Below are positions 35,076-60,152 of a stretch of 64,000 bases of DNA, one piece after another. Made by a program: the position numbers and the translations under genes. Positions within the stretch are counted from its first letter, which is position 1; each line of letters opens with the position of its first letter. Below the pieces are notes generated by a model that worked only from the letters and a program-made list of their open reading frames with translations, did no database searches and had not been told where the DNA came from. Origin of the DNA: Gemmatimonadetes bacterium bin94 (GTDB taxonomy: Bacteria; Gemmatimonadota; Gemmatimonadetes; Longimicrobiales; Gaopeijiaceae); the NCBI GenBank assembly GCA_002238865.1, contig MPNE01000013.1:1-64000 (forward strand). Direction: 5' to 3'.

Positions 35076-36152
35076 CTACGAGGTGCCGCAAGGCACTCTC
35101 TCCGTCTGCACATCGGCGAAGGACACGTTCGGTCCCTTGGGGGTCACCACGATATGATATGGACGCACAATCCGCCGCGCGGGTGCGCAAAAGTCGCCGG
35201 GGATCCGTTCGACGACTTCGATCTTGGTCCCCGTGACGCCCTCGGCGTCCCCGACCTGCAACACGCGCCGGACTTCCACGGAGTCGCCCACCTCTTCCCT
35301 GACCCCCACAGCTCCTATCACCACCATCTCCCTCGCCCAATCCACCTCGGGCAGGGGCCTCCCGTCCGAGGCCGTGTGAACCGCCCAGAACTCCGCCCAT
35401 TGCTCGGCAGCCGCTTCCGCGTCCGATTCGTCGGGGGACAGAAAATGCGTCGGTCCCTCCAACTCCGTGCCCGTCATGGTCCCCTTCTCCAGCGTGGCGA
35501 ACGGCAGGCTTCCGGAGTAGCGCGATTGAAAGTCCTCGCCGACGGTCCAGTTCCGGGCCGTGATCGCGGCCTGGATCACCCGCGCGGCATTCGTGTCCGG
35601 ACCGGATCCTCCAGTTGTCAGGGTGGCAAGGGTGCCGTCCGCACACCGCGTCCAGTCTGTCTGCTCGTCCCGTCCCGAGTCGCGAACAAGGACCGTCACC
35701 CGGCTCGCTCCGGCCCTGCACTGGGGCTCGAGATCCGGATCCAGGCTCGGCACCCCGAAGAGTTTTGCGCCCTCGTGGTCGTTCAACTGCGTGATCAGGG
35801 TCGCGTACGAAGCAGCGAACTGAACCGGCAGGCCCGGATTGCGCGTCATATGTTCGTCGCCGACCACACCGTCGTATCCGATTTCCTCGAAGAGCCTCCA
35901 GGCCCCGTCCGAATTCCATGTCAGAACGTGCTGGAGCCAGCCGATGTCGCCCTGAAGCGGCGTCTCGACGGTGACCCGTATCTCGCCAGCCTGCCCAAAG
36001 CGGAGGAATCCGTTGCCCACACCGGTCGAATCGCACCCTGTTGTTATGATGTAAGTCATGGTCAGACTGATACTTAGATATTTCGCAAAGAACCTTCCCG
36101 GACTTCCCTTGCGGGGCCGTCCATCGTATCTTTCCCTTGTTATGCCTGCCAT
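35076..36152 (-). CDS. Lipoprotein-like protein with PrcB-like C-terminal domain
   Basis: First gene of the minus-strand operon, about 358 aa from the ATG at 36152. That start has a strong ribosome binding site (GGAGG 6 nt upstream) and gives an Arg/Lys-rich n-region followed by a hydrophobic segment and a lipobox-like TTGC, so the protein may be lipid-anchored at the envelope. The ATG at 36059 would leave only eight residues before the Cys and is less likely. The C-terminal 90 residues (VDWAREMVVIGAVGVREEVGDSVEV, IPGDFCAPARRIVRPYHIVVTPKG) resemble the C-terminal domain of PrcB. Two Cys in this region could form a disulfide. The function is unknown; it probably supplies the periplasmic or outer-membrane arm of the sensor operon. 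Its start lies inside the beginning of pyrE. Confidence 0.6.
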   Translation of the reverse strand: MAGITRERYDGRPRKGSPGRFFAKYLSISLTMTYIITTGCDSTGVGNGFLRFGQAGEIRVTVETPLQGDIGWLQHVLTWNSDGAWRLFEEIGYDGVVGDEHMTRNPGLPVQFAASYATLITQLNDHEGAKLFGVPSLDPDLEPQCRAGASRVTVLVRDSGRDEQTDWTRCADGTLATLTTGGSGPDTNAARVIQAAITARNWTVGEDFQSRYSGSLPFATLEKGTMTGTELEGPTHFLSPDESDAEAAAEQWAEFWAVHTASDGRPLPEVDWAREMVVIGAVGVREEVGDSVEVRRVLQVGDAEGVTGTKIEVVERIPGDFCAPARRIVRPYHIVVTPKGPNVSFADVQTERVPCGTS

Positions 36153-37871: not shown

Positions 37872-37951
37872 GGATGGCCTGTTGCGAGAGCCGGGGAGGG
37901 AAACCTGAAGGACCGTAGGAAGGCGTAGTCCACAGGAGCCGCGGTCTGTCC

Positions 37952-37992
37952 TATGAATAAGTAACTAAAGATAAAAAGAATCGTCATCATAG
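37952..37992. other. AT-rich candidate DNA-unwinding element
   Basis: The only strongly AT-rich stretch in the dnaA-dnaN gap (about 41 bp), containing runs such as AAGATAAAAAGAA and ATGAATAAGTAACT. It lies a few bases from a DnaA-box-like site (37997-38005) with a short C/G cluster between, which fits an unwinding element. Confidence 0.6.
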
Positions 37993-37996
37993 GGGC

Positions 37997-56332: not shown

Positions 56333-57317
56333 AATCACCTACCGGGATGCCCTGAACGCCGCCATGTGCCAGGAGATGGACCGGGACGACTCGGTCTTTC
56401 TCATGGGCGAGGAGGTCGCCGAGTACGATGGCGCCTACAAGGTCTCGCGCGGGATGCTCGATCGGTACGGGGACCGGCGGGTCGTCGATTCGCCGATCAG
56501 CGAGCTGGGCTTCACGGGGCTTTGCGTCGGCGCCGCGATGACGGGACTGCGCCCGATCTGCGAGTTCATGACCTTCAACTTCTCGTTCCTCGCCATCGAC
56601 CAGGTCATCAACAGCGCGGCCAAGATGATGTACATGACCAACGGCCAGGTCCCGGTCCCGATCGTCTTCCGCGGCCCCACCGGAGCGGCGCTGCAGCTCT
56701 CGGCACAGCACTCCCAGGCGTGCGAGACCTGGTACGTGCACGCTCCCGGGGTGAAGCTGGTGACGCCCGCCACCCCCGCCGACGCCAAGGGGCTGCTGGC
56801 CGCCGCGATCCGGGACGACGACCCCGTCGCGGTGATGGAGGGCGAGCTGCTCTACAACGTTCGGGGCGAGGTCCCCGACGAGGAATACGTGATCCCCCTG
56901 GGCGTGGCCGACCTGAAGCGCTCGGGGGACGACGTGAGCATCGTGACCCACGGCAAGATGGTGCACGTGGCGCTGCAGGCGGCGCGCACGCTGGCCCGCG
57001 ACGGGATCGAGGCCGATGTCCTCGACCTGCGCTCGATCCGGCCGCTGGACGTCGACGCGATCCTGGAGACGGTGGCCCGCACGAACCGGGTGGTCTACCT
57101 GGAGGAAGGGTGGCCGTTTGCCGGTGTCGGCGCCCAGATCGTGTCCCTGATCCAGGACGAGGGCTTCGACGACCTCGATGCCCCGGTCGTCCGTGTGACC
57201 CAGGCCGATGTTCCGATGCCCTACGCGAAGAACCTGGAACAGCTCGCGAAACCGGGCGTCAAGGCGGTAGTGGAGGCGTGCAGGAAGGTGCTGTACCTGC
57301 CGGCGGGTGGCCGATGA
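56325..57317 (+). CDS. pdhB: Pyruvate dehydrogenase E1 subunit beta
   Basis: Beta subunit of E1, 330 aa, which completes the active site. Markers: MAEITYRDALNAAMCQEMDRDDSVFLMGEEVAEYDGAYKVSRG, EFMTFNFSFLAIDQVINSAAKM, FRGPTGAALQLSAQHSQ, and the C-terminal YLEEGWPFAGVGAQIV. ATG at 56325 overlaps the alpha gene by 8 bp, with GGAGG upstream (spacing about 9). Subunit ratio is likely balanced by this coupling. Assembles with PdhC (E2) and Lpd (E3) in the same cluster. Confidence 0.93.
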   Translation: MAEITYRDALNAAMCQEMDRDDSVFLMGEEVAEYDGAYKVSRGMLDRYGDRRVVDSPISELGFTGLCVGAAMTGLRPICEFMTFNFSFLAIDQVINSAAKMMYMTNGQVPVPIVFRGPTGAALQLSAQHSQACETWYVHAPGVKLVTPATPADAKGLLAAAIRDDDPVAVMEGELLYNVRGEVPDEEYVIPLGVADLKRSGDDVSIVTHGKMVHVALQAARTLARDGIEADVLDLRSIRPLDVDAILETVARTNRVVYLEEGWPFAGVGAQIVSLIQDEGFDDLDAPVVRVTQADVPMPYAKNLEQLAKPGVKAVVEACRKVLYLPAGGR

Positions 57318-57336
57318 CGAAAGCGACGGTGTAGAC

Positions 57337-58674
57337 ATGGCAACCAGGGTCCACATGGAAGCCCTCTCCCCGACAATGGAAGAGGGTCAGGTCGTCAAGT
57401 GGCTGAAGGGCGAAGGCGACGCGGTCGCCCAGGGCGACATCCTGGCCGAGATCGAGACCGACAAGGCCACGATGGAGCTGGTGGCCCGGGGCGAGGGCGT
57501 GCTCAGGAAGGTCTTCGTGGGCGAGGGGGCCGCCGCGCCGGTGGGGGACGTGATTGCGGTGATCGCCGCCGAGGACGAGGACATCGCCGCGCTGGTCGCG
57601 GCGGCGGGGAGCGGAGGGGCGACAGATGCTCCAGCGGCGGATGGCGCCGGTACTCCAGCGGCGACTCCTTCGGCAGCGGCCTCGGCGCCCGCCGCAGCGC
57701 CCGCTGTGGTCGCCGCTCCCGGGACCGCTCCAGCGCACGGGGCGGCAGCTCCCGCCACGAGGGCCCCGGCCGCTGCCGCCACACCCGCGTCCGCGCCGAC
57801 CGGCCGTATCAAGGCCTCGCCCGTGGCCAGACGCCTTGCCCGGGATGCCGGTGTGGACCTCGCCGCCGTGCAGGGATCGGGACCGGGCGGCCGCGTGATC
57901 AAGCGGGACGTGGAAGCAGCGGCCGAGGAGGCTGCCGCGGCTCCGGCTCCGGCCGTGACCGCGTGGCCGGCTCCCGCGCCGGACACCGAGTTCGTGGACG
58001 CCCCGCTGTCGCAGATGCGGAAGACGGTCGCCCGCCGTCTGACCGAGTCGCTCGGACCCGTGCCCCACTTCTTCCTCACCGTCGACGTGGACATGACCCG
58101 AGCTCTGGAGGCGCGCAGGCAGGTGAATCGGCTGCTTGCAGAGCGGGGCGCCAAGGCGTCGATCAACGACTTCGTGATCAAGGCCGCGGCGGTGGCCCTG
58201 ACGCACCACCCCGAGTGCAACGCGTGGTGGCAGGGCGACTCGATCCGCCGCTTCAACAGGGTTCACATGGCCGTCGCGGTCGCCGTGCCCGACGGTCTGA
58301 TCACGCCGGTGGTCAGGGACGCGCACGCCAAGGGCCTCGGCCGGATCAGCGCCGAGGTGAGGGAGCTCGCGGGGCGGGCCCGGGAAAAGAAGTTGCAGCC
58401 GCACGAGTACACCGGGTCCACCTTCTCGATCTCCAATCTGGGCATGTTCGGGATCGAGGAGTTCACCGCCGTGATCAATCCTCCGGAGGCCGGGATCATC
58501 GCGGTCGGCGCGGTGGAGGAGCGTCCCGTGGTGCACGAAGGCCAGGTCGTCGTCCAGCCGCGGATGCGGGTCACGATGAGCTGCGACCACCGGGTGATCG
58601 ACGGTGCACAGGGCGCGCGCTTTCTGGCGACGCTGAAGTCGTTCCTGGAAGAGCCGGCGGCTATTCTCATATAG
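57337..58674 (+). CDS. pdhC: Dihydrolipoamide acetyltransferase (E2 of pyruvate dehydrogenase)
   Basis: E2 core, 445 aa. One lipoyl domain (about 1-75) with the lipoyl Lys in EIETDKATMELVARG, an Ala/Pro-rich flexible linker (about 85-160), a peripheral-subunit-binding domain (SPVARRLARDAGVDLAAVQGSGPGGRVIKRDVE) and the catalytic domain with MRKTVARRLTESL, the active-site SCDHRVIDGAQGARFLATLK (His and Asp). ATG at 57337; GTG at 57307 would add ten residues. Its stop is followed at once by the 43-bp palindrome (58675-58717). Confidence 0.92.
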   Translation: MATRVHMEALSPTMEEGQVVKWLKGEGDAVAQGDILAEIETDKATMELVARGEGVLRKVFVGEGAAAPVGDVIAVIAAEDEDIAALVAAAGSGGATDAPAADGAGTPAATPSAAASAPAAAPAVVAAPGTAPAHGAAAPATRAPAAAATPASAPTGRIKASPVARRLARDAGVDLAAVQGSGPGGRVIKRDVEAAAEEAAAAPAPAVTAWPAPAPDTEFVDAPLSQMRKTVARRLTESLGPVPHFFLTVDVDMTRALEARRQVNRLLAERGAKASINDFVIKAAAVALTHHPECNAWWQGDSIRRFNRVHMAVAVAVPDGLITPVVRDAHAKGLGRISAEVRELAGRAREKKLQPHEYTGSTFSISNLGMFGIEEFTAVINPPEAGIIAVGAVEERPVVHEGQVVVQPRMRVTMSCDHRVIDGAQGARFLATLKSFLEEPAAILI

Positions 58675-58717
58675 TGTACAGGTAGTTTTGTACATAATGT
58701 ACACAAAGATCTGTACA
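58675..58717. promoter_or_regulatory. 43-bp near-palindrome of four TGTACA boxes
   Basis: TGTACA occurs at 58675, 58689, 58698 and 58712, with start-to-start spacings of 14, 9 and 14 bp. The whole block is an imperfect inverted repeat centred on 58696: two 21-bp arms, 17 of 21 positions complementary, one central base. It begins one base after the E2 stop codon and is followed by ATTTT. The region is clearly more AT-rich than the flanks. It may be an operator array, a bidirectional terminator or both. Confidence 0.7.
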
Positions 58718-58760: not shown

Positions 58761-60152
58761 ATGAGGAGGATCATGGGTGATTTGAAGAAGCGCGGATGGG
58801 CGATCGTGCCGGTGGCGTTTTTCGCAGTCGCGGCGTTGGGCTCGGCACCGGGTCCGGCCACGGCGGCCCTCGGCCCGGCCACGCCCGCACCGCACCCCGC
58901 CCCCCTCGTGGCACAGGAAACCACCTCCACGCGGCAGGAGACCACCACCCTCATCCGCGCGGCCCGGATGATCGACGGCAAGGGCAACCTTCTGGAGCCC
59001 GGCGCCGTCCTCGTCTCCGGCGACCGCATCGGCGCAACGGGCTCGGAGGCCGCCTCCGCCCGGGCCGACCACGTCATCGACCTCGGCGACGCCACCATCC
59101 TGCCCGGGCTGATCGATCTGCATACGCACCTCACGGACCGCGTGGGCACGCACTGGGAGGAAGTGCTGATCACCACCACGCCCGCACAGGCGGCGCTGTA
59201 CGGGGCCGCCAACGCCCTGACCACCCTGCGCGCCGGCTTCACCACCGTTCGCGACATGGGCCCCACCTGGCCCTACACCGATGTCGACCTGCGCGACGTG
59301 ATCGACGCGGGCGTGCTCCCGGGGCCGCGCATGCAGGTGGCCGGCAACTACGTCTCGGCGACGGGCGGCGCCGGCGACGCGCGCCAGTTTTCCATCTACG
59401 TGGACGTGCCGACGGTGCGGAACCTCGCCGACGGGGTGGACGCGGTGAGGGCCGCCGTGCGCACCAACCACAAGCACGGAGCGGACTTCACCAAGATCCT
59501 GGCCACGGGCGCGGTGCTGTCCCAGGGGCTCTCGCCCGGCGCGCAGCAGTACTCGGACGCCGAACTCGCCGTAGCGGTGGAGGAGACGAACCGTTGGGGC
59601 CGCTTCACCGCCGCCCACGCCCACGGCGCCGAAGGCATCAAGGCCGCGATCCGCGCGGGCGTGCGCACCATCGACCATGGCTCCATGCTGGACGACGAGG
59701 CGATCGTGATGTTGCAGGAGAGCGACCACACCTACTTCGTGCCCACGCTGTACGTCGGCGTGATCGTCCCCCGCGACGGCGCGGCCCTCGGCATCCCCGA
59801 GGAACAGATCCGGCGCTCGACCGAAATGATGCGCTACCGCAACGCCGCCTTCCGCCGCGCCATGGAGGCCGGGCTGACCGTGGGCTTCAGCACCGACGCC
59901 GGCGTCTTCGAGCACGGCCACAACGCCCGCGAGTTCCGGATCCGCGTGGAGAACGGCCAGAGCGAGATGGACGCCATCACCTCGGCGACGAGCACCTCCG
60001 CCATGATCATGGGCTGGGAAGCGGACGTCGGGTCGCTCGAAGCGGGGAAGTACGCCGATGTGATCGCCGTGCCCGGCAATCCGCTCGACGACATCACCGT
60101 CCTGGAGCGCGTGATGTGGGTGATGAAGGGCGGGGAGGTGTACCGGGACTGA
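58761..60152 (+). CDS. Secreted metal-dependent amidohydrolase
   Basis: Exported amidohydrolase, 463 aa. The N-terminal signal region contains AIVPVAFFAVAALGSAPGPATA, followed by a Pro/Ala-rich stretch. The catalytic TIM barrel shows LPGLIDLHTHLTD (HxH zinc ligands, about 115-125), FTTVRDMG, FTKILATGAV (Lys likely carboxylated), FTAAHAHG, TIDHGS and FSTDAGVFEHG. It resembles the imidazolonepropionase/Xaa-Pro-dipeptidase-like group; the substrate is unknown. It sits between the E2 and E3 genes of the PDH cluster; transcription may be controlled by the palindrome upstream. Confidence 0.82.
   Translation: MRRIMGDLKKRGWAIVPVAFFAVAALGSAPGPATAALGPATPAPHPAPLVAQETTSTRQETTTLIRAARMIDGKGNLLEPGAVLVSGDRIGATGSEAASARADHVIDLGDATILPGLIDLHTHLTDRVGTHWEEVLITTTPAQAALYGAANALTTLRAGFTTVRDMGPTWPYTDVDLRDVIDAGVLPGPRMQVAGNYVSATGGAGDARQFSIYVDVPTVRNLADGVDAVRAAVRTNHKHGADFTKILATGAVLSQGLSPGAQQYSDAELAVAVEETNRWGRFTAAHAHGAEGIKAAIRAGVRTIDHGSMLDDEAIVMLQESDHTYFVPTLYVGVIVPRDGAALGIPEEQIRRSTEMMRYRNAAFRRAMEAGLTVGFSTDAGVFEHGHNAREFRIRVENGQSEMDAITSATSTSAMIMGWEADVGSLEAGKYADVIAVPGNPLDDITVLERVMWVMKGGEVYRD

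What the first reader, a model, noticed from the sequence alone, without database searches (positions are those of the whole stretch)
58675..58717. 43-bp near-perfect palindrome of four TGTACA boxes downstream of pdhC
Four TGTACA hexamers occur within 43 bp, with start spacings of 14, 9 and 14. The block is symmetric about 58696, with 17 of 21 positions complementary between arms. It begins one base after the E2 stop codon and lies before the secreted amidohydrolase. It is AT-rich in a GC-rich region. Candidate functions are a regulator's operator array (each TGTACA is itself a palindrome, so several dimers could bind side by side), a terminator, or a cruciform-forming element. I know of no published regulator with this exact layout.
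Basis: seen in the sequence. Interest (0 to 1): 0.65.

Follow-up and report, generated by a model that had tools for sequence, protein, structure and literature searches.

The report
Antitoxin-type operator array before a hydrolase
A 43-base block of four identical TGTACA boxes in front of a secreted hydrolase gene looks like a landing site for the DNA-binding half of a toxin-antitoxin pair; in this one species that site also sits at about nine places other than the pair's own promoter, suggesting that an antitoxin has become a wider gene regulator.

Summary
Four TGTACA boxes (starts 14/9/14 apart) occupy 58675-58717, directly after the pdhC stop codon and 55 bp before a secreted amidohydrolase. 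The genome has ten such arrays built from one unit, TGTACA-N7/8-TGTACA; about 0.01 such pairs are expected by chance. The four-box form is absent from 120 other genomes of the family, 22 congeners among them. One array is the promoter of a phd-vapC (PIN) toxin-antitoxin pair. In 13 of 17 homologues of that antitoxin, from several phyla, the same unit (at most 1 mismatch) lies near -42; in 10 other Phd/YefM antitoxins of this genome it does not. Congeners carrying this antitoxin have one 14-spaced pair each, at phd; congeners without it have none. The window array is therefore most likely two back-to-back Phd-type operators acting in trans on the amidohydrolase: one of nine non-TA sites, several apparently gained in this species (relatives have no AT-rich element at C26, C14, C72, C45). 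Terminator, LitR/CarH, mobile-repeat and TA-relic readings fit worse. Binding and regulation are inferred, not shown. Congeners have other ~40-bp dyad classes at the same amidohydrolase promoter, so a different regulator remains possible.

The parts
58675..58717 (.). four-box operator array, two mirrored TGTACA-N8-TGTACA units separated by TAA
   Evidence: the same layout at G000:C25:22510 (phd promoter) and C26:25699, near-identical at C72:36055 and C80:160965
58675..58680 (.). TGTACA box 1
58689..58694 (.). TGTACA box 2
58698..58703 (.). TGTACA box 3
58712..58717 (.). TGTACA box 4
57307..58674 (+). pdhC, dihydrolipoamide acyltransferase (E2); its stop codon abuts the array
   Evidence: Biotin_lipoyl, E3_binding, 2-oxoacid_dh
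58773..60152 (+). amidohydrolase with an apparent signal peptide, presumed regulated gene; AGGAGG just upstream of the ATG at 58773 (an in-frame ATG also at 58761)
   Evidence: (Amidohydro_1, E 3.9e-45)

Best explanation
The array is a double operator for a Phd/YefM-family antitoxin, most likely the one encoded with a PIN-domain (VapC-type) toxin at G000:C25:22265-22507. The operator unit is TGTACA-N7/8-TGTACA. The window array is two units back to back (14/9/14), placed between pdhC and a secreted amidohydrolase. The antitoxin, alone or with VapC, would bind the boxes (by analogy with YefM/Phd, one dimer per TGTACA palindrome, with the toxin bridging dimers) and repress transcription that starts at or enters the amidohydrolase; degradation of the antitoxin under stress would relieve it. 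Shown here: the boxes, their recurrence at ten loci, the conserved unit upstream of this antitoxin clade, and absence of the 14-spaced unit from congeners that lack the antitoxin. Inferred: binding, direction of regulation, stress link, and that one antitoxin serves all ten sites.
For: (1) Ten TGTACA arrays in the genome: 4-box at C25, C26, C42, C72, C80; 3-box at C14, C37; 2-box at C34, C45, C57. (2) The C25 array, same 14/9/14 layout, ends 2 bp before the ATG of a PF02604 antitoxin followed by a PIN toxin. (3) In 13 of 17 clade members (Gemmatimonadota, an Acidobacteria MAG, Bryobacterales, Binatia) TGTACA-N7/8-TGTACA with at most 1 mismatch lies upstream of the start, in nearly all about 42 bp; 0 of 10 other Phd/YefM antitoxins of this genome have it at that stringency. 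(4) In the genus, six other genomes with the antitoxin (G013, G016, G020, G024, G027, G030) each have one 14-spaced pair, at phd; the other 16 have none. (5) Boxes are invariant in the arrays while spacers differ, and with 2 mismatches allowed the 14-spaced pattern is no commoner than its reversed control. (6) Among congeners examined, AT-rich dyads occur at this locus only where the amidohydrolase follows pdhC, so an array there belongs to the amidohydrolase promoter. (7) TGTACA is the experimentally known core of the YefM and Axe operators (PMC7730913), and antitoxins acting on non-TA promoters have precedent (MqsA, PMC4803016; SavR, PMC5913840).
Against: No binding or expression data. One array (C45) lies about 60 codons inside a conserved coding sequence, where a promoter operator is not expected. 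In every congener and outgroup with this antitoxin that was examined the unit is confined to phd (one extra pair in G121 was not examined), so trans sites are not a general habit of the family. Congeners carry unrelated dyad classes at the same amidohydrolase promoter, so another regulator class acts there and could have a TGTACA-type member. Other TGTACA-using arrangements exist in the genus (12/12/12 near endonuclease IV; N4 upstream of a PadR gene). Four clade members (two from one sister genus, Vineibacter, Rhizobium) lack the unit. The genome was not scanned for MerR/LitR or PadR regulators.
Confidence: 0.62

Rival explanations
1. Operator array of a different, unidentified repressor (for example PadR- or XRE-type, or the regulator of the other ~40-bp dyad classes in this genus), which also controls phd-vapC in this species.
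For: Congeners G020-G023 and G012/G014/G019 have other ~40-bp dyads at the same amidohydrolase promoter; G019 has TGTACA-N4-TGTACA upstream of a PadR gene; this genome has a second dyad class; several targets encode apparently exported proteins, a plausible regulon.
Against: The 13/14-bp TGTACA unit is conserved with one antitoxin clade across phyla, and in this genus 14-spaced pairs occur only in genomes with that antitoxin.
Confidence: 0.25
2. Short mobile palindromic element (REP or miniature transposon) that spread in this species.
For: Sharp AT-rich islands gained at several loci where relatives have no AT-rich element (C26, C14, C72), one inside a coding sequence with a net +9 bp in frame.
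Against: Only boxes and spacing are shared; spacers and flanks differ between copies, unlike REP/MITE copies. Box number and spacing vary in discrete operator-like ways. The same unit is conserved at phd promoters in other phyla.
Confidence: 0.06
3. Relics: operators left by former copies of the phd-vapC cassette that were lost.
For: One array belongs to such a cassette; another (C37) lies about 400 bp from a different phd-PIN pair.
Against: tblastn of phd and vapC finds no remnants in up to 6 kb on either side of the other nine arrays; only 55 bp separate the window array from the next gene; four-box symmetry is intact at five loci.
Confidence: 0.03
4. Transcription terminator, RNA hairpin or cruciform after pdhC.
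For: The transcript can fold (-18.6 kcal/mol, z -3.7), four T follow the last box, and the array abuts the stop codon.
Against: No terminator-like site by scan; the hairpin follows from four self-complementary boxes; the other arrays lie mostly upstream of genes, two ending 2-9 bp from an ATG; relatives in which lpd directly follows pdhC have no array.
Confidence: 0.04

Closest known systems
YefM-YoeB / Axe-Txe operators (Phd/YefM antitoxin family)
   Same: TGTACA core palindromes, in pairs, overlapping the promoter, bound by a Phd/YefM-fold antitoxin (PMC7730913)
   Different: known pairs are 12 bp apart centre to centre and sit at the TA operon; here 14/9/14, four boxes, at a non-TA gene, and the linked toxin is a PIN/VapC type
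Phage P1 Phd-Doc regulation
   Same: Phd dimers bind adjacent operator sites with the toxin as co-repressor (conditional cooperativity; PMC4803016, PMC13034048)
   Different: toxin family, site spacing and genomic setting differ
Antitoxins with extra targets: MqsA, SavR
   Same: an antitoxin binding operator-like sites at other promoters (PMC4803016, PMC5913840)
   Different: different operators; here about nine extra sites, apparently gained in one species
LitR/CarH (B12-binding MerR family) operators
   Same: paired TGTACA boxes
   Different: published LitR sites are TGTACA-N12-TGTACA (PMC9758184); no N12 pair here

Membership tests
Phd/YefM antitoxin operator | TGTACA-core palindromes in pairs | tested here: met
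   PMC7730913
Phd/YefM antitoxin operator | 12-bp centre-to-centre spacing (YefM-YoeB subtype) | tested here: not met
   14/9/14 here; the linked PIN-toxin clade uses 13 or 14, so it is not a YefM-YoeB-type operator
Phd/YefM antitoxin operator | identical unit at the promoter of a Phd-family antitoxin in the same genome | tested here: met
   C25:22510-22552 ends 2 bp before the phd ATG; PF02604 40.3 bits, cut-off 29.8
Phd/YefM antitoxin operator | the array itself lies at a TA operon | tested here: not met
   window locus has pdhC and amidohydrolase only; no PF02604 hit on contig C42, no phd or vapC similarity near the array
Phd/YefM antitoxin operator | bound by the antitoxin | not testable with these tools
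   needs EMSA or footprinting
LitR/CarH operator | TGTACA-N12-TGTACA | tested here: not met
   start spacings 14, 9, 14; other box pairs are 23 and 37 apart, none 18; PMC9758184
LitR/CarH operator | LitR/CarH gene in the genome | not tested
Intrinsic terminator | G+C-rich stem followed by a run of T | tested here: not met
   0 sites; boxes are AT-rich
REP/MITE repeat | copies alike over their full length | tested here: not met
   spacers differ between all ten arrays

The most novel reading that the evidence does not exclude
In one species a toxin-antitoxin antitoxin has become a regulator of about nine other loci (secreted amidohydrolase, M20 peptidase, beta-lactamase-family genes, a STAS-domain gene and others) through recent gain of its operator; in congeners the same antitoxin controls only itself. 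If so, it is a recent conversion of a selfish or stress module into a wider regulator, with before and after states in sister species. The extra arrays could alternatively act as decoys that set free antitoxin and toxin levels.
Probability: 0.5. Interest if true: 0.7.

Novelty: new variant of a known kind. Interest (0 to 1): 0.55.

Why it matters
How antitoxins acquire genes outside their own operon is largely known from single examples. Here six congeners have the antitoxin with one operator, one species has ten operator loci, and further congeners have neither, so recruitment of a TA repressor to new promoters could be followed locus by locus. It also gives an operator consensus (TGTACA-N7/8-TGTACA) for a widespread Phd-PIN antitoxin clade.

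Tried and rejected
Terminator and hairpin: no terminator site, array positions do not fit. LitR/CarH: spacing does not fit. YefM-YoeB proper: spacing 12 is not met. TA relic: no phd or vapC remnants. REP/MITE: spacers not conserved. Generic Phd operator: the other Phd/YefM antitoxins of this genome lack the unit (the C1 antitoxin has a 2-mismatch look-alike, GGTACAGATTATCTGTACG). Near-miss arrays with 2 mismatches are at chance level. A 13-spaced TGTACA pair in G019 is inside a GC-rich coding sequence and was set aside. PLSDB plasmids gave one partial antitoxin homologue, not followed up. A scan of this genome for other candidate regulators (MerR, PadR) was not run because searches were exhausted.

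Full report
OBSERVATION. The four TGTACA boxes are at 58675, 58689, 58698 and 58712, the first directly after the pdhC TAG (58672-58674). The 43-mer is complementary at 17 of 21 positions and is the strongest 43-bp dyad of the window, but 12 of those matches are the boxes themselves and the spacers give 5 of 9. The next gene is a predicted secreted amidohydrolase with AGGAGG before the ATG at 58773.

RECURRENCE. In the 4.42-Mb genome (G000) there are ten TGTACA arrays: C14:19460 (13/13), C25:22510 (14/9/14), C26:25699 (14/9/14), C34:32146 (14), C37:11776 (9/14), C42 = window (14/9/14), C45:61060 (13), C57:50996 (14), C72:36055 (13/9/13), C80:160965 (13/9/14). The unit common to all is TGTACA-N7/8-TGTACA; about 0.01 exact pairs are expected by chance. 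Boxes are invariant in these arrays (they were found by exact search), spacers are not, and allowing 2 mismatches at spacing 14 adds nothing above the reversed control. The four-box pattern is absent from 120 other genomes of the family, including 22 of the genus.

CONTEXT. Nearby genes: phd-vapC after an AbiEii-type gene (C25); Beta-lactamase2 and metallo-beta-lactamase-fold genes, divergent (C26); molybdopterin oxidoreductase and a DUF5818 protein, divergent (C14); an X-Pro dipeptidyl-peptidase-type gene upstream (C34); a Trp_halogenase-like FAD protein and tRNAs, divergent (C37); 6-bladed propeller protein (C57); phosphotransacetylase then a STAS-domain gene (C72); M20 peptidase and propeller protein, divergent (C80). 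Most arrays are upstream of genes; at C25 the array ends 2 bp, and at C37 about 9 bp, before an ATG. The exception is C45, inside a conserved BNR-type coding sequence, where seven congeners lack it and the change is a net +9 bp in frame.

WHICH REGULATOR. The C25 array is the promoter of a Phd/YefM antitoxin gene followed by a PIN toxin. Homologues of that antitoxin were collected from the family and from named genomes. Thirteen of 17 carry TGTACA-N7/8-TGTACA with at most one mismatch, nearly all about 42 bp before the start; none of ten other Phd/YefM antitoxins of this genome does. Within the genus, six other genomes with this antitoxin have one 14-spaced pair each, at phd, and the 16 without it have none; a sister-genus genome has one at phd as well. 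A profile of the clade matches solved antitoxin chains including VapB46 and P1 Phd. TGTACA at 12-bp spacing is the established YefM and Axe operator (PMC7730913). Inference: the unit is this antitoxin clade's operator and the window array is a doubled copy acting in trans.

EVOLUTION AT THE WINDOW LOCUS. Congeners in which lpd directly follows pdhC have no AT-rich block there. Congeners with the amidohydrolase next to pdhC have either no block (G016, G026, G029, G032) or a different ~40-bp dyad: TGTCAnnnTGACA twice in G012/G014/G019, or an ACATaATG-centred dyad in G021-G023, with a related AT-rich block in G020. So the amidohydrolase promoter is a regulated site whose operator class has changed. 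At the C34 locus G022 and G023 also have a different dyad. At the sampled C26, C14 and C72 loci relatives have no AT-rich element, so those arrays were probably gained in this species.

MECHANISM. By analogy with YefM and Phd, a dimer would sit on each TGTACA and the toxin could bridge dimers; repression of the amidohydrolase is the likely outcome, lifted when the antitoxin is degraded. No sigma-70-type promoter or terminator consensus was found, so the promoter position is unknown. Binding, sign of regulation and physiology are inference.

ALTERNATIVES. Another repressor is the main rival (0.25), because other dyad classes exist at this promoter and the genome was not searched for MerR, PadR or XRE genes. 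LitR/CarH is disfavoured by spacing; terminator; mobile repeat by non-conserved spacers; TA relic by absence of remnants.

NOVELTY. Operator box and antitoxin family are known; antitoxins with extra targets are known (MqsA, PMC4803016; SavR, PMC5913840). The 14/9/14 layout, the 13/14-bp unit of the Phd-PIN clade and the expansion to nine non-TA loci in one species appear new as far as the searches here go.

Noticed in passing
G000:C46:1922, C52:44173, C55:23355, C81:13905 (loci L204-L207): A second class of AT-rich dyads of about 39 bp, roughly TGWCAACT..TTTACAT-N-ATGTAA..AGTTGWCA. The C55 copy is upstream of an XRE-type regulator gene followed by a gene for a ModA-like binding protein. Congeners G021-G023 have similar dyads at the pdhC-amidohydrolase gap.
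   Followed up: partly
G012, G014, G019 (L179-L198): A third dyad class, about TAATGTYRACATTA in two copies 21 bp apart, at several loci including the amidohydrolase promoter and one between a Fic-like gene and a serine-hydrolase-like gene.
   Followed up: partly
L123 (G033), L127 (G031), L125 (G028): TGTACA boxes at 12/12 or 12/12/12 spacing in the region upstream of an endonuclease IV-like gene; regulator unknown.
   Followed up: partly
L128 (G019:C27:121951): TGTACA-N4-TGTACA upstream of a PadR-like regulator gene, a possible autoregulatory site.
   Followed up: no
G000:C45:61060-61078 (L025:6001-6019): TGTACA array inside a conserved BNR-type coding sequence, net +9 bp in frame compared with seven congeners; how it arose is unexplained.
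   Followed up: partly
window 36044-36083 and 37942-37995: The only other strongly AT-rich islands in this GC-rich window; not examined.
   Followed up: no
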